Origin: Opitutaceae bacterium TAV5
GTDB lineage: Bacteria; Verrucomicrobiota; Verrucomicrobiia; Opitutales; Opitutaceae
Direction of reading: 5' to 3'
Assembly (NCBI GenBank): GCA_000242935.3
Contig: CP007053.1
Coordinates: forward strand, 558,001 to 622,000
DNA: 64,000 nucleotides
Part shown: piece after piece, positions 30,632 through 45,688 of the stretch
Numbering within the stretch: the first letter of the stretch is position 1
How the letters are laid out: each line of letters opens with the position of its first letter
The notes under the pieces: generated by a model
The model's input: the letters and a program-made list of their open reading frames with translations, nothing else
Databases searched by the model: none
Told to the model about the DNA's origin: nothing
Made by a program: the position numbers and the translations under genes

Positions 30632-32884
30632 TCAGGAGCGGGAGGTCGGCATTTCCGGGACCTTGTCGTCCGCCTCTGCGGTATCCTCGCCCTCTTCGGA
30701 CTCGGTCATGACATAATAATCCTTGTAGGATTTGTCGTAGTATTGGGCATAATAATAACCCGCTACAGCCAGATTCAGTCCGTTAAGGACGGCACCATAA
30801 ACCGGTACATTGGATTCGAGGAGCTTGCGGGCTGCATGCTGCGCGGCTTTGCGTCGCACCTTGTTGAAGAAGATGGTAAAGATCGATCCGCTGACGAGAG
30901 GCAGGATAATCAGGGCATCGCTTACCGCAGCCAGCGGAGGCGTATCGATAAAGATACGGTCATAGCGCTTGCGCAGCTCCGCAATCATGATCTCGAAATT
31001 TTTGCTATTGAGGATTTGCGTCGGATTTTTGGCGCGCCCTCCCGTAGCAATGACATCCAGATTGGGATGCACATCCCGCATCACCACATCATCGATCGTC
31101 GCCGAACCTGCACAAACATCGATTACGCCCTTCAGATTCTCGCGGCGGAATGACTTGTGGATATTCGGCTTGCGCAAGTCGCAGTCCACCACCACCACCC
31201 GGTCTCCGTGCGCGGCAAAGGTGAGGGCCAGATTCGTGGTTGTGAACGACTTGCCTTCGCCGGGCACGGTGCTCGTCGTGAGGAAAGTCTGGGCATTTTT
31301 ACTGTCATTACGCAGACGCAAACTGGAATGCAAAGTGAGAAATGCCTCCGCCACCTGGCGGTCCGCATTGTTCAGGGCAACCTGGGCCTTGTCAGCCTGG
31401 TCCATCTTTTTGATCTGGGGAATCACACCCAGCAGTGGCAGACCAACGACGGACTCGATATCGAACGAACTTTTGACACGATCATCGATAAACGCGACGA
31501 CGAAGGCAAACGCCAGGCCGAAGCCGATACCGAGAATAAAGCCACCGGCCAGATTCAACACGATGCGCGGCTCGACATATTCGTCTTCTCGCGCTGGCAC
31601 AGCACGGGAAATAGGCCGGATCTGGACATTTTGCCCTTCGATGGTGGAGGTGAGATCGATTTCACGGATACGTCCGATTGTCCGGTCGAGGATCTCGCGG
31701 TTGATCAGGAAGTCTTGCTCCAGCATCTGATAATCGACCCCGATCTTGTCCATATTGAGGGAATCCCGCTCGATCTGGGCCAAAGCTCCACGCGCTTCCT
31801 TGTCTGCATTAAAAGCCGTCTGATACTCCGATTTGGTCAACTCTGCAGCAATCTTGAGCGCTTTCTGAAGCTCAAGCTGAGCCTGAGTGAGGGCGTTATT
31901 GGCCTCGATCATCCTGGGATGTTTTTCCTTATAGCGTTCCCGCAACTGTTTGACCGTGATTGTTTGCATCGCGACCTGCGACGCAAGCTGAGCGACCAGC
32001 TGATTGTTGGCAATAAAAGGCAGTTCAAGCAGATCACCGTTGGCCTTGATGCGATCCTCCACTTGTTGCCAACGTACGGTCGCCTCGCTGAGACGAGCTC
32101 CGGACTGCGTCACCAGGGAACCTTGCTCCATCAGCTTGCGCGTCTGGATGTCTTTGGTCTTGTCCAAAGATCCCATATTATACTTTTCCCGATAGGCCTG
32201 CATCTGTCGGTTGAGATCCTCGACCTTCTTCTTTTGTGATTCGGCCCGAAGTTTGAGATCTTCCAGAATGCCGAATGTCTCATCGACACGTTGACGGGTA
32301 TTGAACTGGACAAATTCCTCAAGGAACAGGTTGGCAACCTTTGCTGCAATCAGACGGTCCGGATGCCTGTATTCAATCGCAACCAGCAAGCTCATCCGGA
32401 ACGGGATGATACTGCGGTTCTGACCCAAGACCTCCAAGGGGGTAAGCGGATCGCCGAAGCGGCCTTTTTCATAAGGCTGCATAAAACGCCTGAGTTCATC
32501 GCCAGTGATACGCTCCGAGACCTTCTGGATGATGGTCGGACTTTCGAAAATCTTGACCATCGTATTCATGTCCTCGGTTGAGAGAACATTATTATCGATC
32601 GGATTCTGCGTTGGCAGCGTAACCGCAGTGCGTCGCATGATCTGAACAGTGGCCGAAGCGCTGAAAATCTTCGTCTGGCTGAAAGTGTACACAAGAGCCG
32701 ACGAGAAGATAACGAGAAATACGACGACGATATACCAGATACGCTCTCTCAGAATCAGCAGATAATCCGAAAGCGTGCGCTGACCGGAGGCTTCATTGCC
32801 GTAACCCGGATATTCGTTATAGCCACCATAACCGTATTCAGCCCGACCATCGGACGGGTTGGGTTGTTTCGCTTGAGAGTCCAT
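30632..32884 (-). CDS. exopolysaccharide Wzc-like tyrosine autokinase / chain-length protein
   Basis: A 750-residue inner-membrane protein. It combines an N-terminal Wzz domain with TM1 (about 48-68), long coiled-coil segments (about 200-400), a G-rich loop ahead of TM2 (about 440-465) and a C-terminal BY-kinase domain. The kinase has Walker A' TSTVPGEGKSFTTTN (about 535-550), Walker A VVVVDCDLRKPNIH and Walker B IFIDTPPLAA. The tail carries a Tyr cluster (YYYAQYYDKSYKDYYV) for autophosphorylation. It controls polymerisation and export of a polysaccharide with the Wza-like protein, whose gene ends 7 bases upstream. The genes here are clearly AT-richer than the flanks. Confidence 0.93.
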   Translation of the reverse strand: MDSQAKQPNPSDGRAEYGYGGYNEYPGYGNEASGQRTLSDYLLILRERIWYIVVVFLVIFSSALVYTFSQTKIFSASATVQIMRRTAVTLPTQNPIDNNVLSTEDMNTMVKIFESPTIIQKVSERITGDELRRFMQPYEKGRFGDPLTPLEVLGQNRSIIPFRMSLLVAIEYRHPDRLIAAKVANLFLEEFVQFNTRQRVDETFGILEDLKLRAESQKKKVEDLNRQMQAYREKYNMGSLDKTKDIQTRKLMEQGSLVTQSGARLSEATVRWQQVEDRIKANGDLLELPFIANNQLVAQLASQVAMQTITVKQLRERYKEKHPRMIEANNALTQAQLELQKALKIAAELTKSEYQTAFNADKEARGALAQIERDSLNMDKIGVDYQMLEQDFLINREILDRTIGRIREIDLTSTIEGQNVQIRPISRAVPAREDEYVEPRIVLNLAGGFILGIGFGLAFAFVVAFIDDRVKSSFDIESVVGLPLLGVIPQIKKMDQADKAQVALNNADRQVAEAFLTLHSSLRLRNDSKNAQTFLTTSTVPGEGKSFTTTNLALTFAAHGDRVVVVDCDLRKPNIHKSFRRENLKGVIDVCAGSATIDDVVMRDVHPNLDVIATGGRAKNPTQILNSKNFEIMIAELRKRYDRIFIDTPPLAAVSDALIILPLVSGSIFTIFFNKVRRKAAQHAARKLLESNVPVYGAVLNGLNLAVAGYYYAQYYDKSYKDYYVMTESEEGEDTAEADDKVPEMPTSRS

Positions 32885-32891
32885 GCGCAGA

Positions 32892-33500
32892 TTAAAGAAT
32901 TTTTTCTCTTACAAAAATAACATCGTTGGGTCGCAATACCCAAGCATTGCTGGAACTGTTGGTTGTTATAAGCTTGCTGACATCAATGACGTAATTGCGG
33001 CTCTGGCCATTATCATCGGTCCGCGTCAAGGTGACGTTTTTGGGATTGCCCAAGCGACTGAATCCTCCCGCTCTGGCAATGGCCTCGACCAAGGTAAGTG
33101 ATTTTTCCTGGGGAAACGGAACCGGGCCTGGCTGATTGACCGATCCGATGACATTCACCACTCGCTCGGCATAACGGAGGATGATGATCGTTATCTGCGG
33201 ATTTTGCAGGTAGTCTTTCTCGTAAAGAACGCGAATTTCCTTTTCGATTTCGCGTACTGTCTTGTCCCGAACATTGACATCGCCGATCAGAGGCAACGAG
33301 ACCGTGTAATTCCGGCTGACGCTCACCTCGCGGGTCAAATCATCTTCCTGAAAGACCTTGACCTGGATGAGGTCGGAAGGAATCAGCACATAATCCTTGA
33401 TACTTTCCGGAGGCGGAGGAGTCGATTCCTCCTGGGCTTTTCCGGAAACCGCTGCCATCACCAGAGCGATGAGTGTTACTATTTTAAGAATATTGCACAT
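32892..33500 (-). CDS. polysaccharide export protein (Wza/BexD-like)
   Basis: A 202-residue exported protein: a signal peptide (MCNILKIVTLIALVMAAVSGKAQ), a Poly_export domain (DYVLIPSDLIQVKVFQEDDLTREV), then SLBB-like beta-grasp segments (YAERVVNVIGSVNQPGPVPFPQEKSLTLVEAIARAGGF). Shorter than full Wza (~380), as is common in verrucomicrobial clusters, and without a lipobox Cys after the signal. It would form a periplasmic/outer-membrane channel with the Wzc-like kinase. ATG 33500 is chosen because the longer frame adds only basic residues and crosses the terminator-like hairpin at 33514-33550. Confidence 0.9.
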   Translation of the reverse strand: MCNILKIVTLIALVMAAVSGKAQEESTPPPPESIKDYVLIPSDLIQVKVFQEDDLTREVSVSRNYTVSLPLIGDVNVRDKTVREIEKEIRVLYEKDYLQNPQITIIILRYAERVVNVIGSVNQPGPVPFPQEKSLTLVEAIARAGGFSRLGNPKNVTLTRTDDNGQSRNYVIDVSKLITTNSSSNAWVLRPNDVIFVREKIL

Positions 33501-33513
33501 GGCTTTCAGAGAG

Positions 33514-33550
33514 AAAAAAAACGGAAGAAGATAAAAAATCCTCCTCCGTT
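33514..33550 (-). terminator. hairpin plus T-run between barrel gene and wza-like gene
   Basis: On the minus strand AACGGAGGAGGAT and ATCTTCTTCCGTT pair with two G-U wobbles around a T-rich loop and are followed by eight T residues. It lies 45 bases after the barrel gene's stop and 14 bases before the next start. It may act as a partial terminator that lowers expression of the two export genes. Confidence 0.7.
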
Positions 33551-33595
33551 TCGAAGACAAATCAGTGGATATTAACCCGCTTTAAGGAAGCGATA

Positions 33596-34729
33596 TCAGT
33601 AACGGAAGGACAAGGTGAGAGAAACGACATTCGCCTTGAAATCGTAGACATTGATATTGGAATCATTCCACTGATAATTGTAAGCGGCAGTCAGGTTGAA
33701 ATATTGATTGATTACATAATTACCATAGATGGCAAAGATATAAAAATCATCCGAACGAGAGGTCCTCGAATAATCGATTGAATCATAGGAAACCGAGGCA
33801 CCTGTCATCAACTCGGTAGTGAGCTGGGTCTGGCCACCCAATGCGACGTGAAACACTTCAGTGCCAGCACCATTGGAAGCTGTGCCGAAATCATTATCGA
33901 GATCCAGTGTAAAGCTGGTCTTGGGTGAATAAGCATAAGTCAGGCCAACCGCAGCACCGAGGGCCGAAGTGTCATCAAGATTGCTGGCATCGTAGGTACG
34001 AAGATTATAACCGACCGAAGCACGACCCGAAAGCTTGGGAGTGAAATCACCACGGGCACCAACGTTGAAGTAGTAATTATCCGTATTGGACCCTGAATCT
34101 ACATCGCTGTGGCGGTAACGGACACCAACACTCAAGTCGACCTTTTCGGTAACTCCATAATAATAATTAACCGGGACCGAATAATCAGTTGAATCACTGT
34201 AACCGTTTGTCTTGTAGTGAGTATCCGAATACCCTGCTCCGAGTGAGAATTTGCTTTTCTCTGTCAGGAGGTATTCGGCATTGCCAGCCGCCGTCGTTAC
34301 ATTGCGGCGGACGAGGCGGTTGGGATTGAGCGGGTCCAGTGTATCACGGGAATTCTGGTAAATTTCCCGATAACCGGCAGAGACGTTAATTTTCCAGCGA
34401 ATCCCGTCATAGCTGGTGATAAAACTGGCCGTGGTCAGGTCGGAGTCGACATCATCGGTATCGAAATACTCCGTCCACGTATGAGCAGCATTGAGAGTAC
34501 CCTTCCAGAGAGAATTTTTGCCAAAAACCAACTCCAGCCCTGGAGCAACGATGAATGAGAAATCATCCTCTTTGTTACTATCAGTCAGGAAGATGTTATC
34601 TTCGTAGCGAAAACCCGCCTTGGCAGTGACAAAAAGCTCGGCGTTATCTCCAATGGAGAGAAACGGGGCAGCTGCAAGTGAGGTGGTAAGAACGACGGGG
34701 ATGGCTGCTAATTTGTAAAGTTGATTCAT
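33596..34729 (-). CDS. outer-membrane beta-barrel protein of the exopolysaccharide locus
   Basis: A 377-residue outer-membrane protein with a signal peptide (MNQLYKLAAIPVVLTTSLAAA) and a body of alternating beta strands such as ASVGYNLRTYDASN, KVDLSVGVRYRHSD and YFNVGARGDF. It closes with the aromatic terminus SLTLSFRY expected of a Bam-inserted barrel. Similar barrels occur in Wzx/Wzy and PEP-CTERM-associated polysaccharide loci as export or anchoring components. The gene is clearly AT-rich compared with its surroundings. It lies in line with the Ala-rich gene upstream (47 bases) and the wza-like gene downstream. Confidence 0.85.
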   Translation of the reverse strand: MNQLYKLAAIPVVLTTSLAAAPFLSIGDNAELFVTAKAGFRYEDNIFLTDSNKEDDFSFIVAPGLELVFGKNSLWKGTLNAAHTWTEYFDTDDVDSDLTTASFITSYDGIRWKINVSAGYREIYQNSRDTLDPLNPNRLVRRNVTTAAGNAEYLLTEKSKFSLGAGYSDTHYKTNGYSDSTDYSVPVNYYYGVTEKVDLSVGVRYRHSDVDSGSNTDNYYFNVGARGDFTPKLSGRASVGYNLRTYDASNLDDTSALGAAVGLTYAYSPKTSFTLDLDNDFGTASNGAGTEVFHVALGGQTQLTTELMTGASVSYDSIDYSRTSRSDDFYIFAIYGNYVINQYFNLTAAYNYQWNDSNINVYDFKANVVSLTLSFRY

Positions 34730-34776
34730 AGCTGGGAGAACGTGTAGGTCGCAGATGATCGGCAGTCAAGTCCTCT

Positions 34777-35445
34777 TCACAGAGCAGGACTTACCGGTAC
34801 GGTCGCACTCGGATTGGGTTGAGGAATAAGACCGTCCAGACTCCCAAAAACGCGTCCCGGTGAACCCGGACTGGTTCCTTGGCTCTCTCCCTGCAAATTA
34901 GCAGCAATATCGGCGATTTCCGGAGAATTTGCCGCTTGCGTGACCTGGGCAACGGTCAACGAACCATCGGAGGCGGTGCTGATAGCCTGGGCAACTGCGC
35001 TGATGCTGAGGCCCTTTCCACCGGCGATAAGAGCAACGGCACCGGCGACATCTGCGCGAACGCTCGGCTGGGCATTACCCACTTGAGTGGCAATGTTGAC
35101 GAAAGCCGAAATGTCGGCAGTGGGAGGAAGAGTTGAAGCAACCGCGGCTGCGATCGACGCGGCCTGAGAGGGAGGCACTGCGGCGGCGGCGGCGGCGGCA
35201 ATGGCAGCGGCACTGGCCGGATTGGCCCTGGCAACAGCGGCGGCGATGGCGGCAGCGTTGTCGGGATTGCTGGCGAAGACAGCCTGCAAGGCAGCGGTAT
35301 CACCGGCTGCGAGAGCCGCCGAGGCAGCAGCGACTGCGTCGGCAATCGTGGCATCCGCAGTCACAGAAGTGGTATCGGCCTGGGAAAAACCCGCAACCGG
35401 CGTGAACGCCAGCGCGGCAACAAACATTATCGTCCGTGCTTTCAT
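34777..35445 (-). CDS. Ala-rich secreted protein of the exopolysaccharide locus
   Basis: A 222-residue exported protein: a signal peptide (MKARTIMFVAALAFTPVAGFSQA) and a mature part with extreme Ala content. It is built from recurring helical units such as AAIAAAVARANP, AAIAAAAAAAVP and SIAAAVASTLPP, each ending in Pro, then an acidic-to-neutral end. It resembles other small Ala-rich secreted proteins in verrucomicrobial secretion loci, but no family is recognised. The first gene of the exopolysaccharide operon by position; ATG 35445 has the signal at the usual distance. The antisense frames are composition artefacts. Confidence 0.7.
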   Translation of the reverse strand: MKARTIMFVAALAFTPVAGFSQADTTSVTADATIADAVAAASAALAAGDTAALQAVFASNPDNAAAIAAAVARANPASAAAIAAAAAAAVPPSQAASIAAAVASTLPPTADISAFVNIATQVGNAQPSVRADVAGAVALIAGGKGLSISAVAQAISTASDGSLTVAQVTQAANSPEIADIAANLQGESQGTSPGSPGRVFGSLDGLIPQPNPSATVPVSPAL

Positions 35446-35645
35446 GTGGTAGTTTTCTTTGTTACTTACTTTAATCCTGAATGGTGGTTCTGACCTGCAA
35501 GTTCGAGACAAATGCAATCAATCTGCTGGCGCAAGGCATATTTTGCCTTTTCCATCACTCTTCTTTTAACTGACACCGTCCGTATCCGGCAGATAAGGAC
35601 CACTTGCAACCATAACCCAGCCTTCGCTTTCCATCGATAACCGGC

Positions 35646-37507: not shown

Positions 37508-38410
37508 TCAGCGTCCGCCTGCGCCCAGCCTGCCCAGCAACAACCGCACGCCTTCGATCGGTGGCCCGGCCACGGCGCGCAGCGTGAACGGAGACTGCAC
37601 GCGCAACGCTTCCATCGCCACCGGGTGCGTGAGCACCGGGCCGCTCACGCCACAGACCAGCGCTCCCCGCTCCTCGCCCGGAAACACCCGGTCCGCCACC
37701 GTCACCGCCAGCGTCAGCAGCTCACCGCACGATTCCGTCACCAGCCAGCGCGCCGTGTCATCCCCTTCGGTGGCGAGGCGCAGCAGCACCGGCGCCAGCG
37801 TCGCGATCTGCCGGTTCGGCTCCGCATGTTGATAAAAATAACGCTTGATCGCCGGTTCCTCCATCAGGTGGGTGAAATCCCGCACGCATTGCGACAATCG
37901 CGTCGGCACCATCCAGCCCTGCAACTCCAGCAACGCCCGCGACAGCATCCGCCGGCCCAGATCGTAGCCGCTCCCCGCATCGCCGAGCCGCCAGCCCAGC
38001 CCGCCGCCGTAGTGCACCTCGCCATCCCGCCCCCGCGCGGCCACGAACGAGCCCGTGCCGCCATGCAATACCAGGCCGGGCCCGCCCTGCGTCGCCAGTT
38101 CCAGCACCGGACGCGAGTCGTCGCACGTTTCCACGCGCCCCAGTCCGTCCAGCCCGGTGGCCACTTCGCGCCAGAATGCAGGCGCGCCCGCCATGCAGAG
38201 CAAGGTGTGCTGCACCGGCTGGTCGGCGCCCGGACCATCTGCCTGCGCGAGCAAGGCGTCGATCGCCTCGTCGAGAATCGCGCGCGCCTGGTCCGGGCCC
38301 ACCACGTTCGGATTGCAACCTGCCGCCACATGACGCGCCACGATCTCGCCCGCATCATCCACCAGGATGAGTTCCGTCTTGGTGCCACCGCCATCGATAC
38401 CGATTTTCAT
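37508..38410 (-). CDS. BadF/BadG/BcrA-type ATPase family sugar kinase (GlcNAc-kinase-like)
   Basis: A 300-residue ASKHA-fold kinase. The phosphate-1 motif DGGGTKTELILVDDAG begins the protein (residues 5-20). The phosphate-2 motif is HGGTGSFVAARG, the family GWRLGDAGSGYDLGRR follows, and the adenosine motif is near CGVSGPVL. Members phosphorylate N-acetylglucosamine or other amino sugars; the other possibility, a CoA-dehydratase activator, would have Cys ligands that are missing here. Its start overlaps the stop of the gluconokinase fusion by 4 bases (ATGA), so the two are translationally coupled. Confidence 0.85.
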   Translation of the reverse strand: MKIGIDGGGTKTELILVDDAGEIVARHVAAGCNPNVVGPDQARAILDEAIDALLAQADGPGADQPVQHTLLCMAGAPAFWREVATGLDGLGRVETCDDSRPVLELATQGGPGLVLHGGTGSFVAARGRDGEVHYGGGLGWRLGDAGSGYDLGRRMLSRALLELQGWMVPTRLSQCVRDFTHLMEEPAIKRYFYQHAEPNRQIATLAPVLLRLATEGDDTARWLVTESCGELLTLAVTVADRVFPGEERGALVCGVSGPVLTHPVAMEALRVQSPFTLRAVAGPPIEGVRLLLGRLGAGGR

Positions 38411-39513
38411 GCGTTGCCGCCTGGTTTGAGGATTGATGCCTGTGCTGTTGCCGCCGGGTCCGCGTAACCTTCGAGACCCAGCCCATGCCGGATTGACGTC
38501 ACGATTTCCGGTACGGTTGCCGCCTCCGTTTCCACCGCCAGCGCTTCACCCCGCGCCGGCGATTCGAGCGTCGCGAGCTGGCTTTCCAGCATCACGGCCC
38601 TCATGAAATGCCGTCCCCCGGCCGCCCGTGTCTCCAGACGCGTGTGCAAGGTCGCCGGTGTCGCCTTCAGCCAGACAAACGCCACCGCGCCTCGCGGCCC
38701 CGCCGCCGCCAGCGTGTCCCGGTAGCTCCGCCGCAAGGCCGAACAGGCCAGCACCGCGTGCTTCCCGGAATCAACGATTCCGGCGCCGGCGCGGTCCGCC
38801 GGCGTCGCCGGCCCAGCCATCTCCGTCAGCCTCGTCCGCAGTGCCGCCAGCCAGGGCTCCCGGTCCGCATCCGTGAGCGGTTGCCCGGATGCCATTTTTT
38901 TCACGTTGGCCTCGGGATGGAAATCATCGGCGTCCAGAAAACTCCAGCCACCCGCCGCGCCCGTCGCCGCCGACAGGGCCGACGCCAGGGCGCGACCGAC
39001 CGTCGTCTTGCCGCTGCCCGCCACGCCCATCACGACGATCACCCGGATCGCGCCCGGCCGGTCCAGCGCCCGCGAGACCGCAGGGTCGCGCCCCTCGTCA
39101 AAATCCAGATAATCGAACATCGTCTCGATCGGCCGGTCCTCCAGTCCCGACTCGCGCGCGCGCTGCCGGACCATATCCGCAGCCTCGTCGCGCCAGCCGC
39201 GTTTCGACAGGAAGGCGTTCCAGATTTCGCATTCCTCGTCGCTGCGCTTCGCGCCGCGCTCGTGGCACCACGCCAGCAGCGCCTCGTCGTCGCGTTCCTC
39301 CAGAGCCCGGGCGCGCAGATCCGCATAAGCCACGCCGAGAAAGCGGCAGCAGCGCGCGTCGAACAGGCCCGGCCGCGCATCGCCGAGATTATCCAGATAA
39401 TCCGCCGGCAGGCGACCGGCGACGTGCAGACGGATCTTGTCGATCATGCGGGCGAAATAAACCAGCCGGCCGACTTTGTGAAAGGGGCTGCGAAGTCCGG
39501 GGACGATAGGCAT
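38407..39513 (-). CDS. DUF5069 domain - gluconokinase (GntK) fusion protein
   Basis: A 368-residue two-domain protein. Residues 1-~145 are a DUF5069 domain (LRSPFHKVGRLVYFARMIDKIRLHVAGRLP...DYLDNLGD), a family normally found alone at about this length with no known function. Residues ~155-350 are a complete GntK-type carbohydrate kinase with Walker A VMGVAGSGKTTVGRAL, the FLDADDFHPEANVKKMASGQPLTDADREPWL block and CSALRRSYRDTL, which phosphorylates gluconate to 6-phosphogluconate. Together with the overlapping sugar kinase gene it suggests a small sugar-acid salvage operon. Sequencing error is unlikely because the domain junction is in a continuous, normal-composition frame. Confidence 0.88.
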   Translation of the reverse strand: MPIVPGLRSPFHKVGRLVYFARMIDKIRLHVAGRLPADYLDNLGDARPGLFDARCCRFLGVAYADLRARALEERDDEALLAWCHERGAKRSDEECEIWNAFLSKRGWRDEAADMVRQRARESGLEDRPIETMFDYLDFDEGRDPAVSRALDRPGAIRVIVVMGVAGSGKTTVGRALASALSAATGAAGGWSFLDADDFHPEANVKKMASGQPLTDADREPWLAALRTRLTEMAGPATPADRAGAGIVDSGKHAVLACSALRRSYRDTLAAAGPRGAVAFVWLKATPATLHTRLETRAAGGRHFMRAVMLESQLATLESPARGEALAVETEAATVPEIVTSIRHGLGLEGYADPAATAQASILKPGGNA

Positions 39514-39938: not shown

Positions 39939-41177
39939 ATGGCAACCTCCACCCGTCCCAAGAAAGTCGCGCTCCTCACCGCCGGCGGCCTCGCGCCCTG
40001 CCTCAGCTCCGCCGTCGGCGGACTTGTCGAGCGCTACACCGAAATCGCGCCCGATATCGAGATCATCGCCTACCGCGGCGGCTACAAAGGCCTCCTCCTC
40101 GGCGACAGCTACAAGATCGGTCCCGCCGAACGCGCCAACGCCGCCATCCTCCACCGCCACGGCGGCAGCCCCATCGGCAACAGCCGCGTCAAACTCACCA
40201 ACGTCAAGGACTGTGTGAAACGCGGCCTCGTCAAGGAAGGCCAGGATCCGCAAAAGGTCGCCGCCGACCAGCTCATCAAGGACGGCGTCGATATCCTTCA
40301 CACCATTGGCGGCGATGACACCAACACCGCGGCCGCCGACCTCGCCGCCTTCCTCGCCCGAAACAACTACGGCCTCATCGTCATCGGCCTGCCCAAAACC
40401 ATCGACAACGACGTCTATCCCATCCGCCAGTCCCTCGGCGCCTGGACCGCCGCCGAACAGGGCGCGCGCTACTTCCGCAATGTCGTCGCCGAGCACAACG
40501 CCAACCCGCGCATGCTCATCATCCACGAGGTCATGGGCCGCAACTGCGGCTGGCTCACCGCCGCCACCGCCGCCGGATACCGCAAGCTGCTCGACCGCGA
40601 GGAATTCGTTCCCGGCCTCGGCCTCTCGCGCGCCAACCTCGAGGTCCACGCCGTGTTTATTCCGGAAATGGCCGTCGATATCGCCTCCGAGGCCGCCCGC
40701 CTCCGGAAGGTCATGGATGAAACGGACAACGTAAATATCTTCATCTCCGAAGGCGCCGGCGTGGAGTCGATCATCGCCGAAATGCAGGCCAAGGGCCAGG
40801 AGGTGCCGCGCGATGCGTTCGGCCACGTGAAGCTCGACGCCATCAATCCGGGCAAATGGTTCGGCGACCAGTTCGCCAAAATGCTCGGCGCCGAAAAAAC
40901 CCTCGTGCAGAAGAGCGGTTATTTCGCGCGCGCCGCCGCCGCCAACATCGACGACCTGCGCCTCATCAAGAGCTGCACCGACCTCGCCGTCGAATGCGCC
41001 CTGCGCCGCGAGAGCGGCGTCATCGGTCACGACGAGGACCAGGGCGGCGTGCTCCGCGCGATCGAGTTCCCCCGCATCAAGGGCGGCAAGCCATTCGACA
41101 CCGGCGCCCCCTGGTTCGGCGCGCTCCTCCAGGAGATCGGCCAGCCGCAAGGCGCGAAGATCGAAGTGAAACACTGA
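39939..41177 (+). CDS. pyrophosphate-dependent 6-phosphofructokinase
   Basis: A 412-residue glycolytic enzyme phosphorylating fructose-6-phosphate with PPi (reversible). The PPi signature GGDDTNT (ATP-PFK has GGDGS) and PKTIDNDVYP are both present, with MGRNCGWLTAATA, and the lysine of the PPi site in PKTIDND. Length fits the ~400-residue PPi-PFK clade. Being reversible, it can serve both glycolysis and gluconeogenesis with PckG, and it saves ATP in a fermenter. A 28-bp perfect inverted repeat begins 18 bases after its stop. Confidence 0.93.
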   Translation: MATSTRPKKVALLTAGGLAPCLSSAVGGLVERYTEIAPDIEIIAYRGGYKGLLLGDSYKIGPAERANAAILHRHGGSPIGNSRVKLTNVKDCVKRGLVKEGQDPQKVAADQLIKDGVDILHTIGGDDTNTAAADLAAFLARNNYGLIVIGLPKTIDNDVYPIRQSLGAWTAAEQGARYFRNVVAEHNANPRMLIIHEVMGRNCGWLTAATAAGYRKLLDREEFVPGLGLSRANLEVHAVFIPEMAVDIASEAARLRKVMDETDNVNIFISEGAGVESIIAEMQAKGQEVPRDAFGHVKLDAINPGKWFGDQFAKMLGAEKTLVQKSGYFARAAAANIDDLRLIKSCTDLAVECALRRESGVIGHDEDQGGVLRAIEFPRIKGGKPFDTGAPWFGALLQEIGQPQGAKIEVKH

Positions 41178-41194
41178 CGTTACACGGATCGACC

Positions 41195-41284
41195 GCAGGG
41201 GCGTCGCTTGCCGACGCCCGCGAATACCTTGGTCATTCGCGAGTTCGTCCGGCTGGCGCGGGCGTCGGCAAGCGACGCCCCTGC
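41195..41284. repeat. perfect 28-bp inverted repeat
   Basis: Arms at 41195-41222 and 41257-41284 are exact reverse complements, with a 34-base spacer. Each arm contains its own hairpin GGGCGTCG-CTTGC-CGACGCCC. It lies between the convergent PPi-PFK and peptidase genes. Confidence 0.9.
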
Positions 41285-41344
41285 CTCCGGAATGCGTGAC
41301 GGCAGTGAAACACCGGGTCGTACGATCCGCCCGCCCCCCCCGGC

Positions 41345-42799
41345 TCACCGCGAGATCATCCAGTATTCGTCCTGCGAGATTTTTTGCGCGACCTCGGCCG
41401 GCACCCAGCGCTCCGCATAATCCGGTCCCCACGAATCGGTGAAGGCGATTTCGTCTGTCGCCCGGTTGTAGCCGATGAGCAGGCACGCATGCGCGTTGGC
41501 CCGGGTGCCGGTGAATCCCTTCGCCGTCGCAGCGACCGTCTTTTTCCATGCCGCCCAGTCCGTCGCTCCGGCGCGGGCGCGTGTGTGTTCGTTGGATACG
41601 CGGTTGAAGTCCTCCGTCGAAAACAGCCCCCAGATCACCGGATAACCGTCGTCGATGTAGCTCGAAAGCGCGACGGGCGTGAGCCGCTTCAGCGGCGCTT
41701 TTTCCAAGCTGCGCCCCTGACGCTGACGACGCATATAGCGGCTGATACCCCAAGCCATGCCGGAAAACGTGGTCCCGCCGCCGAAACTCGTATCGGCGAC
41801 CATCGCCAGTTCGTACATGTCGGCCGGAATGCCCAGGTAACGCAAATACCGCTCGAACGTCGCCGGCACGCAATACCCCTTCGGGTCTTGGGAGACCATC
41901 GGCACCTGGTCCAGAATCACGTCGCCATTAGCGCGCCGGGTGATGCCGGCTTCCAGCCGCTTGCGCAGTTGCTCGCTGGCCAGACGCGGTTCCGCGCTGC
42001 GGAGGGCCGGAACAATCTTCAGCGACACCATTTGTTCCTCGTTGTAGTCGAGAAGGAAACATGTGTCCCCGTAAAGCCAGGACAGTCTGTTGCCCCCGCG
42101 ATCGGAAGCACTCCCTGAAAATTCGCGCGACGATTCGCCGAGCCGGGCGGAAAGCGCGGCGGAGATTTTTTCGAAATCAGCCTTCAGTGCCCGGTCAAAT
42201 TCACGCCGCGAACTCTTGCCAACGACCACAAGCCCGGCCCGCTCCCCGACAAAAGCCGGATAATCGCCGCGGTTGGCAAACACGATCGTGACGTCCGCGA
42301 TGCGGCCCTCGCCGGCATGAAGGCTCAGCGTGTAAGCCTGCGCTCCCAACATCGTCAGCGGACGCGACGGATACACCCGGTAACTCTCGAACAGCCTGGT
42401 CCTCCCTTCTTCCGGCAACCGCAGGCGCGCAGCGACAGCGCCGGGTTCGTCGTCCCACAGGTTGTCATCGGCAAACAGTTCGAGGCCCAGCAGCGGATTG
42501 ATCTCCCTGACCGGGTCGATTGTTCTTCCCGGCATACCTTCTCCCGGATCCTTGGCCCAGGCCGGTTTCGGCGCCGCCTGCGCGGCCACCCAGTCGCGGT
42601 CCGGCCAGGAAAGTCGCTCGAGTTCGAGGCGGAACAACTGTCCGTCATCGCGACGGATGGTGACGGTCGTCTCTGTCGCCGACACAAACCCGGCCTCGAC
42701 GGTACGCCCCTGCGTATCCGTCCAGGTGCGGGCGGTGAGCGCCAAGGCGGCCAGCCCCGGAAAAAGCATGACCGCAAAAACGCGGAAGGATCCGTTCAC
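41345..42799 (-). CDS. SHD1 domain - C39-like cysteine peptidase protein
   Basis: A 484-residue exported protein. A GTG start at 42799 overlaps the previous stop (GTGA) and has a strong GGAGG 7 bases before it, so the longer frame to 43015 is rejected. The signal peptide (residues 1-~21) is followed by an SHD1/SLA1-homology-like segment (ARTWTDTQGRTVEAGFVSATETTVTIRRDDGQ...LERLSWPD). A middle region of unknown fold leads to a peptidase C39-like domain with nucleophile Cys at about 309 (DPKGYCVPAT), His at about 436 (NAHACLLIGYN) and Asp at about 454 (FTDSWGPDY). It is the third gene of the ATPase-TOPRIM unit. The peptidase is predicted to act in the periplasm, which makes its link to cytoplasmic partners uncertain. 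Confidence 0.82.
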   Translation of the reverse strand: MNGSFRVFAVMLFPGLAALALTARTWTDTQGRTVEAGFVSATETTVTIRRDDGQLFRLELERLSWPDRDWVAAQAAPKPAWAKDPGEGMPGRTIDPVREINPLLGLELFADDNLWDDEPGAVAARLRLPEEGRTRLFESYRVYPSRPLTMLGAQAYTLSLHAGEGRIADVTIVFANRGDYPAFVGERAGLVVVGKSSRREFDRALKADFEKISAALSARLGESSREFSGSASDRGGNRLSWLYGDTCFLLDYNEEQMVSLKIVPALRSAEPRLASEQLRKRLEAGITRRANGDVILDQVPMVSQDPKGYCVPATFERYLRYLGIPADMYELAMVADTSFGGGTTFSGMAWGISRYMRRQRQGRSLEKAPLKRLTPVALSSYIDDGYPVIWGLFSTEDFNRVSNEHTRARAGATDWAAWKKTVAATAKGFTGTRANAHACLLIGYNRATDEIAFTDSWGPDYAERWVPAEVAQKISQDEYWMISR

Positions 42800-43446
42800 G
42801 CTTCGCCTCCTTTCCACTCCCGCAAGTCCCGCGAGAGCGCGTGGAAGCCGGGGAAATCGTGCTCGATGCGGCGCAGGTCTTTCGCATGGCGGCGGACTTC
42901 GCGCAGCGCGCATTCCGTCATCCATGGCAACGACGGACGTTCGGTACCGTAGACGCGGGCCTTCAGTTCGCGCCGCGTCCAGGGCGCCGCTCCGGTTTCC
43001 TGCCCGAGCACCCAAGCGGCTTCGGTGACGGCCGCGTCACGGCCGCACAGATACCAGGCCTCGATCGCGGGCACCGCCAGGCCGACGCCGCGCAGGAGGC
43101 CGGCGCGGCGCCCGCGCAGCGGGAGTTTTTTGGTCGTCTGGCGAAACACGGCGCGAAGCTGGCACATCCGGCAGCCGGGATGATGATGGCCGGGCTCGTC
43201 GTGCGCAGGGGTATGGACGACGGTGTCGTCGCTGTCCACGACCACGACAAGGCCATCCGCATCGGTGTTGAAATGCAGGTGCCGGATGATCGAGGGCAAC
43301 ACCTGGCCAACCGACGGCCAGCCGCGTGCGCGCAGCGGCGGGTAAACGCGCGTGAACGGTTGCCCGAGCGCGGCTTCGACGAGCACGGCCAGCGCCGCCT
43401 CGTCGGCGGGTGACTCGCTGAGGAGGGCGAGTTTCGGGGGGCGCAT
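42796..43446 (-). CDS. TOPRIM-like (DUF4276-type) protein partnered with an AAA_21 ATPase
   Basis: A 216-residue protein. A first strand ends in an acidic residue (LALLSESPADEAAL, Glu11), and a second strand is followed by VVVVDSDDT (Asp71, Asp73), matching the E...DxD pattern of TOPRIM nucleases. A later PAIEAWYL supplies a third conserved acidic residue, as in DUF4276 proteins. Between them is a His/Cys-rich segment (HDEPGHHHPGCRMC, 82-95) that could bind zinc. It starts 1 base before the ATPase's stop codon ends (TGATG overlap) and its own stop overlaps the peptidase start. Such ATPase/TOPRIM pairs are known in OLD-type and PARIS-like phage defence; this one is not identified by me. Confidence 0.78.
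   Translation of the reverse strand: MRPPKLALLSESPADEAALAVLVEAALGQPFTRVYPPLRARGWPSVGQVLPSIIRHLHFNTDADGLVVVVDSDDTVVHTPAHDEPGHHHPGCRMCQLRAVFRQTTKKLPLRGRRAGLLRGVGLAVPAIEAWYLCGRDAAVTEAAWVLGQETGAAPWTRRELKARVYGTERPSLPWMTECALREVRRHAKDLRRIEHDFPGFHALSRDLREWKGGEA
42805..42812 (-). promoter_or_regulatory. strong ribosome-binding site (AAGGAGG) of the SHD1-peptidase gene
   Basis: AAAGGAGG followed by CGAAGC and GTG. It decides the start at 42799 and indicates efficient re-initiation from the overlapping upstream gene. Confidence 0.8.
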
Positions 43447-44486
43447 CACGATTCGCGTTCTTCGGGTACGCCTCCCAGAATGCCGGAATACCACAGGTCG
43501 CCGAGCGAGGCTCCGGTGAGGAGCTCCGCCAGATCGGTGCGGTCGGACAACCGGAAAAAATGGGCCGCGCGCCCGTGTTTTTCGGCAATGACCACCTCCT
43601 CGGGATGCTCGCGAAACAGGTCGAGGAGGTACGGCGAGTGCGTGGTGGCGATGACCTGCGTCGGCGACCGGCCGGCGACGGAGCCCGCATCGCCCGCGAC
43701 GGGCGGCGGCGGATAGCTGAGCTGGTAAAGCGCGTCGCGCAGTTCACGCAGGAGCCGCGGGTGGATGCCGCGATCGAGCTCCTCCACACACACGAGCGAC
43801 GGCGGTTCCGGATTCCAGGCAAGCGTGAGGATGCCGAGCGCGTAGAGCGTGCCTTGCGAGACGTCCTCGGCGGTGATCCACCCCGGTTCGTCGCGGACGC
43901 GAAAGCGCAGGAGCACCGTGTGGCCGTCGTCGTTGTCCGCGGTTTCGATATCCTCGTACTCGGTAAAAATTCTCAGAAATTCCCCGCGCAACGCCGTCCA
44001 GGCGGCGGGATGTTCGGCCGCGCGGCGGGCGAGGACCGCGGCGAGGTTGTGCCCGTCGCCCGCCAGTTCGCCATGATCGGTCGCCGCCGCGGGCGCTGAC
44101 ATCGCGGCGTGATCGAACAGGTACGAACGCATGCCCAGCAGCCGTTCGCGCAGGCCCGCCCAGTCGTCAGCGCCTTCGCCGGTGAGGAGCGGACGCACCT
44201 CGAGCAGGTCGCAGACATTGTCGGTGGAGCAGGTGAGAATGGCTTCGAGACCGGAATGCGGCGGATCGAAGCGGAAAATGATTTCGGGCGCGTCGTCGCG
44301 CAGATCGGCCGGAGCGGACGCGGGCTCGCGGAGCGGCAGGCGGGCGAGCGTGCGCAGACGCATGCCGGCCTGGATGAGGCTCGTTTTCCCGGAGCCGTTG
44401 GGGCCAATGATGAGGGTGAAGGGCGAGAGGGCGATCTGCGTGGACCGCAGGGCCTTGAAGTTACGGAAAGCAACGGAGGCGATCAC
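43446..44486 (-). CDS. AAA_21/OLD-like ABC-type ATPase
   Basis: A 346-residue ATPase of the SMC/OLD-like class. Walker A is GPNGSGKT (28-35), the signature region is EDVSQGTLYALGILTLAW, Walker B is SLVCVEELDRGIHPRLL (about 230-246) and the H-loop is QVIATTHSPYLLDLF. The start MIASVAFRNFKALRS is typical (xxxxFRNFKxL). The end SLGDLWYSGILGGVPEE is shared by AAA_21 proteins paired with DUF4276 partners. It is the first gene of the three-gene unit, so its promoter should lie at 44487-44560. Function inferred: an ATP-driven sensor that controls the TOPRIM protein. Confidence 0.88.
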   Translation of the reverse strand: MIASVAFRNFKALRSTQIALSPFTLIIGPNGSGKTSLIQAGMRLRTLARLPLREPASAPADLRDDAPEIIFRFDPPHSGLEAILTCSTDNVCDLLEVRPLLTGEGADDWAGLRERLLGMRSYLFDHAAMSAPAAATDHGELAGDGHNLAAVLARRAAEHPAAWTALRGEFLRIFTEYEDIETADNDDGHTVLLRFRVRDEPGWITAEDVSQGTLYALGILTLAWNPEPPSLVCVEELDRGIHPRLLRELRDALYQLSYPPPPVAGDAGSVAGRSPTQVIATTHSPYLLDLFREHPEEVVIAEKHGRAAHFFRLSDRTDLAELLTGASLGDLWYSGILGGVPEERES

Positions 44487-44611
44487 AGTGGCAACGACGT
44501 TGGCGAAGCGGAGCGGGCGAGGCCAGCCTTTAGGTGACCTTGCCCGTCATCGACCCACCCCCGGGGGGGGTCGCCTGCCGGCACGCGGGCGGGAGAATCG
44601 GTGGAAACGCC

Positions 44612-45688
44612 CTACCCGGTCACGGTTTCGAGCGAACAGCCGTCGGCGGCTCCCGGATCGGGGGTTTCACAGTTGGGGCGGGCGATGACGCCGGGGTACG
44701 GCTCGTCGGCGAAGAGGCGCGCGGGGTCGGCGAGGAGATGGCGGTCGCAGATGGCAAAAAGCTCCGTCTCGCTCTGGGCGCGGCGCATATCGGACAAAAA
44801 GGCGCCGGCCGGGTCCACGCTCTGGCCGACGAAATTGAGGTACTTTTTCATCTTGTTGACGCGTGCGCGTTCGGGGATGCCGGGCGCGTCGGTCGCCGCA
44901 TACAGGTCGGTGACGTAGCGGCGCACGTCCCCGAGCGTGACCGGCGTGACAGCGCGGCCGGCGAAGGCCTCGCGGCATTGGCGGAAAATCCACGGGTTGC
45001 GGATGGCGTGGCGGCCGATCATCACCCCGGCGGCGCCGGTCTCGCGCACCACGCGCACGGCGGCGCCGGCGGACGTGATGTTGCCGTTGGCGAGGACCGG
45101 GCAGCGCACGCGGCGGACGGCATGCGCGATGAAGTCGTAATGCACCTCGCCGCGGTACATCTCCTTCACCGTGCGGCCATGGACGGCGAGCAGGTCCACG
45201 CGGTGGGCGTTGACGAGATCGAGCACGCGGTCGAAGTTTTTTGTATCTTCGAACCCGATACGCATCTTCACGGTGAACAGGCCGGGGACCGTGGCGCGCA
45301 GGAGGCCGAGGATTTCGTCGATGCGGCCGGGGTCGCGCAACAGGCCGCCGCCGACGTTTTTTTTGTAAACCTTGGGCGCGGGACAACCGAGGTTGAGGTC
45401 GATGCCGGCCACGGGATGGCGAAGGAGTTCGGCGGCGGTGCGGGCAAGATGGTGCAGGTCCTCGCCGATGAGTTGGGCGAACACCGGGCGGCCGGTGTCG
45501 TTTTCGTCGATCGAGCGCAGGATGTGTTTTTCCGGGCGCGATTGCGAGTGGACGCGGAAAAACTCGGTGTAGAAATAATCGGGCGCACCGGTCCCCGCGA
45601 TGACGTGCATGAACGGGTGATCGGTCACGTCCTGCATCGGGGCCAGCGCCGTCAGCGGCTGGCCGGGAATGACGGGGGCGGGTAGCAT
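44612..45688 (-). CDS. tRNA-dihydrouridine synthase (Dus)
   Basis: A 358-residue FMN-dependent enzyme reducing uridine to dihydrouridine in the tRNA D-loop. Motifs: APMQDVTDHPF at the N-terminus, LNLGCPAPKVYKKNVGGGLLRDP with the catalytic Cys, VKMRIGF, AVHGRTVKEMYRG, PVLANGNI and GVMIGRHAIRNPWIF, all in order of the (beta/alpha)8 domain. ATG 45688 is used because the frame further upstream is low-complexity Thr/Arg repeat and overlaps the bifunctional nuclease gene. It sits in a minus-strand run with that gene. Confidence 0.92.
   Translation of the reverse strand: MLPAPVIPGQPLTALAPMQDVTDHPFMHVIAGTGAPDYFYTEFFRVHSQSRPEKHILRSIDENDTGRPVFAQLIGEDLHHLARTAAELLRHPVAGIDLNLGCPAPKVYKKNVGGGLLRDPGRIDEILGLLRATVPGLFTVKMRIGFEDTKNFDRVLDLVNAHRVDLLAVHGRTVKEMYRGEVHYDFIAHAVRRVRCPVLANGNITSAGAAVRVVRETGAAGVMIGRHAIRNPWIFRQCREAFAGRAVTPVTLGDVRRYVTDLYAATDAPGIPERARVNKMKKYLNFVGQSVDPAGAFLSDMRRAQSETELFAICDRHLLADPARLFADEPYPGVIARPNCETPDPGAADGCSLETVTG

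What the first reader, a model, noticed from the sequence alone, without database searches (positions are those of the whole stretch)
41345..44486. Candidate undescribed defence-like operon: AAA_21 ATPase + TOPRIM-like protein + SHD1/C39 peptidase
Seen: three minus-strand genes joined by 1-base (TGATG) and 4-base (GTGA) overlaps, with a strong RBS for the third. Gene 1 is an OLD-like ABC ATPase; gene 2 carries E...DxD plus a His/Cys cluster; gene 3 has a signal peptide, an SHD1-like domain and a cysteine-peptidase triad. Known: ATPase/TOPRIM pairs act in OLD-, Gabija- and PARIS-type defence. The third gene does not fit any of these that I know. Inference: a nuclease-type sensor pair with a protease-type third component.
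Basis: partly seen in the sequence, partly recalled or inferred. Interest (0 to 1): 0.72.

Follow-up and report, generated by a model that had tools for sequence, protein, structure and literature searches.

The report
Opitutaceae near-core ATPase–TOPRIM gene pair
Two overlapping genes for an ATP-driven switch and a predicted nucleic-acid-cutting enzyme, related to bacterial anti-virus machines, are inherited much like ordinary chromosomal genes within one bacterial family; the third gene beside them appears to be an unrelated neighbour.

Summary
The three overlapping minus-strand genes are real and where stated, but not one unit. Genes 1+2 recur together in 78 of 80 fetched loci; gene 3 is in none of them, and its homologues lie elsewhere, also in pair-less genomes. 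Gene 1 is an ABC-ATPase head. Gene 2 has OLD-type acidic residues (E11/D15, D71/D73, E129) invariant in 44 of 44 and a His/Cys insert in 78 of 80; its TOPRIM fold match is weak. It is a distant homologue of PADLOC HEC-01B, so the pair is a divergent branch of split OLD/HEC-01-type pairs. Unlike typical defence genes it was found in one family only (28 of 387 phylum genomes), single-copy, commonly in an AsmA–pair–Aas locus, and its tree agrees with RpoB (8 of 9 supported splits shared, no supported conflict). Pair-less relatives mostly keep the flanking order (9 of 10). Best reading: an ATP-gated nuclease pair of defence ancestry that became a stable lineage gene. Activity and target untested. 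New variant of a known kind.

The parts
43446..44486 (-). gene 1: ABC ATPase (AAA_21; HEC-01A / MAD3 / PtuA / OLD-like head), 346 aa
   Evidence: Pfam AAA_21 1.6e-26; PADLOC HEC-01A 1.6e-36, best of 103 families, 25 shown; NCBIfam MAD3 76.9 bits against a cut-off of 420; AF2 pLDDT 93.3; VIA Z 18.6 to a chain of the retron Ec78 PtuA:PtuB:RT complex, 16.6 to a chain of the AriA-AriB complex, 15.8 to TsOLD
44382..44405 (-). Walker A of gene 1 (GPNGSGKT, residues 28-35)
   Evidence: G28, S32, G33 and K34 invariant, P29 and G31 in 90% or more, of 42 sequences; position computed
42796..43446 (-). gene 2: TOPRIM-like predicted metal-dependent nuclease, 216 aa, with an inserted His/Cys cluster
   Evidence: alignment of 44; AF2 pLDDT 89.4; VIA rows 2, 3 and 6 are OLD Toprim domains at Z 7.2, 7.0, 6.5, under the trust level of 8; hhalign to 13 HEC-01B proteins probability 93, E 3.6e-7
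43228..43236 (-). D71-x-D73 of gene 2 (predicted metal-binding aspartates)
   Evidence: D71, D73 invariant in 44 of 44; equivalent to TsOLD D431/D433 by order and spacing; aligned with the DxD of HEC-01B
43162..43215 (-). H78-x3-H82-x6-H89-P-x-C92-R-x-C95 cluster of gene 2 (predicted metal-binding insert)
   Evidence: exact motif in 78 of 80 gene-2 proteins (L095 and L104 deviate), in 0 of 13 HEC-01B proteins
41345..42799 (-). gene 3: SHD1-like + Peptidase_C39_2-like protein; neighbour by position, not part of the conserved pair
   Evidence: absent from all 80 pair loci as far as they reach; homologues elsewhere in relatives

Best explanation
Genes 1 and 2 form a two-component ATPase–nuclease unit built like a split OLD protein. 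The ABC ATPase (gene 1) binds and holds the TOPRIM-like protein (gene 2), senses a nucleic-acid or protein trigger and, through ATP binding or hydrolysis, licenses gene 2 to cut DNA or RNA with metal ions. It is related to the HEC-01 / MAD3-MAD4 type of defence-associated ATPase–TOPRIM pair, but was probably acquired once near the base of one Opitutaceae clade and then inherited vertically as a single-copy chromosomal cassette, lost in several lineages. I read it as an anti-invader surveillance nuclease that became a lineage-stable gene. Gene 3 is an independent, probably secreted cysteine-peptidase-like protein that lies beside it by chance in this strain. Supported by results: anatomy, conservation, distribution, agreement with the RpoB tree, non-conservation of gene 3. 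Inferred: single gain and later losses, complex formation, nuclease activity, gating, target, anti-invader role.
For: Pair adjacency in 78 of 80 loci, 41 with a 4-base overlap, largest gap 266 bases. Gene 2: E11, D15, D71, D73, E129 invariant in 44 of 44, the order of TsOLD E377/D381, D431/D433, E480, whose triple mutants lose 10- to 20-fold of nuclease activity (PMC7049728, passages). hhalign to 13 HEC-01B proteins aligns E11, D71xD73 and E129 with conserved acidic residues (probability 93, E 3.6e-7). One HEC-01B model hits 22 of 44 members (best E 0.0013), another 13 (0.0024), mad4 6 (0.0027). 14 of 15 HEC-01B loci have a gene-1-like ATPase upstream on the same strand, the same order. Inheritance: the pair tree shares 8 of its 9 supported splits with RpoB, 0 supported conflicts. 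Locus: Aas-like gene downstream on the same strand in 54 of 63 loci with at least 4 kb downstream; AsmA upstream in 33 of 56 with at least 5 kb; 9 of 10 pair-less genomes of the clade keep AcrB–OEP–AsmA–Aas without the pair. No match in plasmids, phages or viral contigs.
Against: No experiment exists. The fold match of gene 2 is weak: Foldseek best E 0.025, none at E<=0.001; the OLD rows (VIA Z 7.2-6.5) are tied with unrelated ones such as the AGO2 MID domain (6.9) and lumazine synthase (6.4). OLD's metal-B Ser/Thr two residues before the Glu is an invariant Ala (A127) here, and D15 has no conserved acidic partner in the HEC-01B proteins. Outside the supported splits 13 of 23 pair splits differ from RpoB, and with GyrB as marker the correlation was weak. 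Gain and loss cannot be told apart by counting changes. The defence role rests on relatives; the distribution would also fit a housekeeping role.
Confidence: 0.5

Rival explanations
1. A housekeeping pair: a lineage-specific DNA-repair or RNA-turnover machine (RecF–RecR-like logic: SMC-type ATPase plus TOPRIM protein) without an immune role.
For: Single copy, RpoB-like tree, common locus with envelope/transport genes, found in one family only, no mobile vehicles found; SMC and Rad50 heads are nearly as close to gene 1 as PtuA (Z 17.9 and about 16 against 18.6).
Against: Absent from 10 of the 36 sampled genomes of the clade, 8 changes of state on the RpoB tree, at least 7 forced by starred branches (genomes chosen by presence), so probably dispensable; TAV5 has its own RecF (305.6 bits, cut-off 172); sequence relatives of both genes are defence families.
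Confidence: 0.3
2. An ordinary, still mobile HEC-01-type defence pair that happens to look vertical in this sample.
For: HEC-01A match 1.6e-36; HEC-01B homology; same gene order; weak distance correlation with GyrB.
Against: One HEC-01B model is patchy over the phylum (14 of 387 genomes, 13 genera), while gene 2 was found in one family and its tree tracks RpoB, in a recurrent locus whose flanks persist without it.
Confidence: 0.12
3. The first reader's three-gene system with a protease as third component.
For: Overlapping reading frames and a strong ribosome-binding site in TAV5 make co-translation likely in this strain.
Against: Gene 3 in 0 of 80 other loci, not in the genus mate, where its 63% homologue is on another contig; homologues in genomes without gene 2 (G024, G050) and in other families.
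Confidence: 0.03

Closest known systems
HEC-01 (HEC-01A + HEC-01B), PADLOC Hma-embedded candidate
   Same: ATPase gene upstream of a TOPRIM-like gene; both proteins homologous; the E...DxD...E-A-W pattern is shared
   Different: Gene 2 not called by HEC-01B models (window protein E 0.066); carries a His/Cys insert that none of 13 HEC-01B proteins has; family-restricted, where HEC-01B is patchy
MADS MAD3/MAD4
   Same: Gene 1 hits MAD3 (76.9 bits); 6 of 44 gene-2 proteins weakly hit mad4
   Different: Far below the MAD3 cut-off of 420 bits; no methylase among the eight neighbours scanned
PARIS (AriA/AriB), proposed OLD class 4
   Same: ATPase and Toprim nuclease on separate genes (review PMC10568477, passages); gene 1 superposes on a chain of the AriA-AriB complex, Z 16.6, rmsd 4.0, 244 aligned
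   Different: No AriB model among the hits of 44 gene-2 proteins listed up to E 5
OLD class 1 (TsOLD) and Gabija GajA (class 2)
   Same: SMC-like ATPase head and TOPRIM acidic residues in the same order
   Different: Split in two genes; no helicase among the neighbours scanned

Membership tests
HEC-01 | HEC-01A ATPase model matched | tested here: met
   1.6e-36 for gene 1; PADLOC's own cut-off is not given
HEC-01 | HEC-01B model matched | tested here: not met
   window protein 0.066; best of 44 members 0.0013. Distant homology by profile comparison only
HEC-01 | anti-phage activity | not testable with these tools
   no experiment; a passage says several HECs including HEC-06 are active and does not name HEC-01 (PMC12988326)
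OLD class 1 | ATPase and Toprim on one polypeptide | tested here: not met
   separate genes in 78 of 78 loci that hold both
OLD-type TOPRIM | metal-binding acidic residues E, D/E, DxD, E | tested here: met
   E11, D15, D71, D73, E129 invariant in 44 of 44; correspondence by order and spacing, not by superposed coordinates; the Ser/Thr before the last Glu is Ala
OLD-type TOPRIM | Toprim fold | tested here: inconclusive
   VIA Z 7.2 (rmsd 4.0, 133 aligned) to 6p74, 7.0 to 6nk8, 6.5 to 6njx; all under 8 and tied with unrelated folds
PARIS | AriB effector | tested here: not met
   no AriB model among the eight families hit by 44 members up to E 5
Gabija | GajB-type helicase next to the OLD gene | tested here: not met
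   eight window neighbours scanned: Dus, PFK, LpxI and others; recurrent neighbours in relatives are AsmA, an Aas-like protein and transporters
MADS | MAD3 above the curated cut-off | tested here: not met
   76.9 bits against 420

The most novel reading that the evidence does not exclude
One bacterial clade has domesticated a split OLD/HEC-01-type ATPase–TOPRIM nuclease, with a new metal-binding insert, into a vertically inherited near-core gene pair that acts as a built-in (innate) nuclease for genome surveillance or repair rather than as a mobile defence module.
Probability: 0.35. Interest if true: 0.6.

Novelty: new variant of a known kind. Interest (0 to 1): 0.42.

Why it matters
ATPase–TOPRIM pairs are mostly studied as fast-moving defence modules. 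A branch that is single-copy, tied to a recurrent locus and inherited with the species tree offers a test of how a potentially harmful nuclease becomes safe enough to keep, or of whether such machines also serve genome maintenance. It also warns that AAA_21 + TOPRIM adjacency alone does not mark a defence island, and that an overlapping third gene in one strain need not belong to the system.

Tried and rejected
Three-gene system: rejected. RecF replacement: rejected for TAV5, which has its own RecF above the cut-off. GyrB as the species marker: set aside; two deep GyrB types split genera, so TAV5 and TAV2 fall in different halves. It gave only a weak correlation with the pair (gene 1+2 Mantel r 0.217, 2 of 2000 shuffles as high; gene 2 alone r 0.125, 80 of 2000), told here as a result against me; RpoB was then used. 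My first GyrB attempt had taken an antisense frame as GyrB and is void. Solved-structure sequence search with the gene-2 profile: nothing at E<=5. Foldseek of gene 2: no hit at E<=0.001. Pfam on the 44 gene-2 members: only scattered weak hits, best E 0.019. Viral, phage and plasmid searches: nothing for gene 2; nothing for gene 3 in plasmids or viral contigs. The gaps of about 2 kb between AsmA and Aas in the pair-less genomes G461 and G060 hold ORFs that by my reading are unrelated to the pair. Sigma-70 promoter scan of 41000-45000: none found. Paper searches (open-licence PMC only): no listing names this pair; apart from the passages, outlines and abstracts cited, the listed papers were not read. 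HEC-01 was seen only as an item in a list in the one on-topic paper found (PMC12724379, passage).

Limits. The 80 loci are the best 80 of 119 and close relatives by design; 17 of the 80 have under 4 kb downstream. The phylum search scored at most 7 candidates a genome and lists only part of the genomes without a match, so very distant gene-2 relatives outside the family could be missed. For the RpoB tree I chose genomes by presence or absence of the pair, so its ratio is not a prevalence; 4 of 30 pair genomes (G072, G083, G014, G055) and 2 of 26 pair-less ones (G015, G024) were dropped for no or too short RpoB.
Full report
What is there. Three minus-strand ORFs lie at the stated coordinates with the stated overlaps and a strong ribosome-binding site before the third. 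The genome totals 7,417,673 bases in two contigs, exactly the chromosome plus plasmid of Opitutaceae bacterium TAV5 (7,317,842 + 99,831; PMC4358385, abstract as shown in the listing), and contig 1 has 7,317,842 bases, so the window is very probably TAV5. The same-genus genome G001 has the same gene-2 match as Geminisphaera colitermitum TAV2; I call it TAV2.

Gene 1. AAA_21 (1.6e-26), best PADLOC family HEC-01A (1.6e-36), NCBIfam MAD3 well below its cut-off. The sequence profile finds TsOLD (1.7e-9 over profile positions 1-82) and retron/Septu PtuA. The AF2 model (pLDDT 93.3) matches the retron Ec78 PtuA:PtuB:RT complex (VIA Z 18.6, rmsd 4.4, 289 aligned), SMC heads (up to 17.9), the AriA-AriB complex (16.6), Rad50 (about 16) and TsOLD (15.8). 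Walker A residues, E235 and D238 of Walker B and S284-P285 are invariant in 42 sequences (motif names recalled).

Gene 2. No Pfam or NCBIfam family. 44 homologues give invariant E11, D15, D71, D73, D74, E129 and a cluster H78, H82, H89, P90, C92, R93, C95. TsOLD uses E377, D431, D433 for metal A and D381, S478, E480 for metal B; the triple mutants lose 10- to 20-fold of activity (PMC7049728, passages). Order and spacing agree, except that the Ser is an Ala here. PADLOC on the 44 members: one HEC-01B model hits 22 (best 0.0013), another 13 (0.0024), mad4 6 (0.0027). I then fetched proteins of one HEC-01B model from the phylum (14 of 387 genomes at E<=1e-10). Aligned as a profile, 13 of the 15 loci's proteins match gene 2 with probability 93 and E 3.6e-7 (one comparison, not calibrated against a database; two incomplete ones were left out), pairing E11, DxD and the E-A-W motif, but not D15. 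14 of the 15 HEC-01B loci carry a gene-1-like ATPase upstream on the same strand. The His/Cys cluster is in 78 of 80 gene-2 proteins by an exact pattern and in 0 of 13 HEC-01B proteins. The AF2 model of gene 2 is confident (pLDDT 89.4), but its fold matches are weak: OLD Toprim domains are ranks 2, 3 and 6 by VIA with Z 7.2-6.5, tied with unrelated folds, and Foldseek has nothing at E<=0.001. The TOPRIM assignment therefore rests mainly on the residues and the profile match.

Recurrence. Of the best 80 of 119 genome-contig loci with gene 2, 78 have gene 1 beside it, a few of them cut by a contig end; in L048 and L093 no gene 1 is found although 4-5 kb upstream is held. Gene 3 is at none of the 80, though 17 of them hold under 4 kb downstream. 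Of 141 relatives 60 have gene 2, one copy each. In an even draw of 387 genomes of the phylum it is in 28, all of the same family; the listing shows 9 same-family genomes without it before the next kinship class begins, which makes 28 of 37 in the family and 0 of 350 outside, if the unlisted genomes follow that order. It was not found in 72,556 plasmids, 50,697 phages or the viral contigs.

Setting. In TAV5 the pair lies among housekeeping genes (PFK, Dus, bifunctional nuclease domain, LpxI); of eight neighbours scanned, one has a marginal PADLOC hit (VakA, E 0.00079). Of the ORFs between 30 and 58 kb of the window, only the pair recurs at the 80 loci, save a polyprenyl-synthase-like match some 8 kb from the pair in L105. 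In TAV2 a stretch close to the pair matches window 17677-19794, 23 kb away here, so the region is partly shared but rearranged. Elsewhere the pair is commonly in one locus: AcrA–AcrB–OEP–AsmA, sometimes an ABC transporter, then gene 1–gene 2, then an Aas-like acyltransferase/AMP-binding protein. Of 63 loci with at least 4 kb downstream, 54 have Aas on the same strand, 3 on the opposite strand and 6 not; of 56 with at least 5 kb upstream, 33 have AsmA. In 9 of 10 pair-less genomes of the same clade the AcrB–OEP–AsmA–Aas order is kept without the pair (with an ABC transporter between in G084, and about 2 kb of other sequence in G461 and G060); G050 is the exception. In TAV5 and TAV2 the Aas locus was found without AsmA or pair within about 10 kb upstream, so in this genus the pair or the locus has moved.

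Inheritance. On an RpoB tree of 50 genomes the pair is confined to one clade of 36 (26 with, 10 without), absent from 9 sister-clade genomes of the family and from 5 of other families; 8 changes against 17.0 for shuffled labels (genomes chosen by presence). The pair tree shares with RpoB 8 of its 9 splits with bootstrap of at least 95 and has no conflict at that level; at any support 10 of 23 are shared (shuffled mean 0.22, maximum 4) and 13 differ. Distances correlate (gene 1+2 r 0.46, 0 of 5000 shuffles as high; gene 2 0.558, 0; gene 1 0.322, 5). The mean distance of the pair is about four times that of RpoB (0.52 against 0.122), yet it is under purifying selection. With GyrB the correlation was weak, for the reason given under Tried and rejected. 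I infer one gain and several losses; the count itself cannot tell.

Gene 3. A C39-like peptidase domain with an SHD1-like N-terminus. Of 141 relatives (own genome included) 27 match at E<=1e-5, many only over the SHD1 part; longer homologues are at 63% in TAV2, 56% in G041, 48% in G024, 51% in G050, with more distant ones in other families. None is beside the pair where I looked: TAV2 and G041 by fetched flanks, while G024 and G050 lack gene 2. Its overlap with gene 2 in TAV5 is real but so far seen in this strain only.

Mechanism. By analogy with OLD and PARIS (passages, abstract; Septu recalled) the ATPase should scaffold and gate the TOPRIM nuclease. PARIS AriB cuts tRNAs (PMC12409363, abstract), OLD cuts DNA; which applies here is open. 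The His/Cys insert just after DxD may bind zinc and shape substrate access; this is inference.

Verdict. Ordinary in kind (split ATPase–TOPRIM pair), unusual in evolution (locus-bound, RpoB-like, family-restricted) and in the insert. The three-gene claim fails.

Noticed in passing
L142-L167 (loci), tree: Two deeply different GyrB types occur in Opitutaceae and split genera (TAV5 and TAV2 carry different types), while RpoB unites them; looks like GyrB replacement or ancient paralogues.
   Followed up: partly
window 41172-41222 / 41257-41307: An imperfect 51-base inverted repeat (80%) lies between gene 3 and the PFK gene; its 21-base core has 6 copies in the genome with up to 1 mismatch, two of the places as inverted pairs.
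   Followed up: partly
L048, L093: Gene 2 without a detectable gene 1 (2 of 80 loci): possible solo TOPRIM-like proteins.
   Followed up: partly
G397: One same-family genome carries both gene 2 and a separate HEC-01B locus, so the two can coexist.
   Followed up: no
window 38410-39513: DUF5069 fused to an AAA_33 kinase-like domain, about 120 bases from a tRNA-Glu gene.
   Followed up: no
window 30632-35517: Low-GC stretch (0.49-0.56) whose ORFs read like an exopolysaccharide export locus (Wzc/Wza-like by my reading, no family search).
   Followed up: no
L036:10643-14206 and L237-L249: The Aas-like protein downstream of the pair has an N-terminal MFS domain in L036, and G461 matches over that part too, while most other genomes searched match only its acyltransferase/AMP-binding part.
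   Followed up: no
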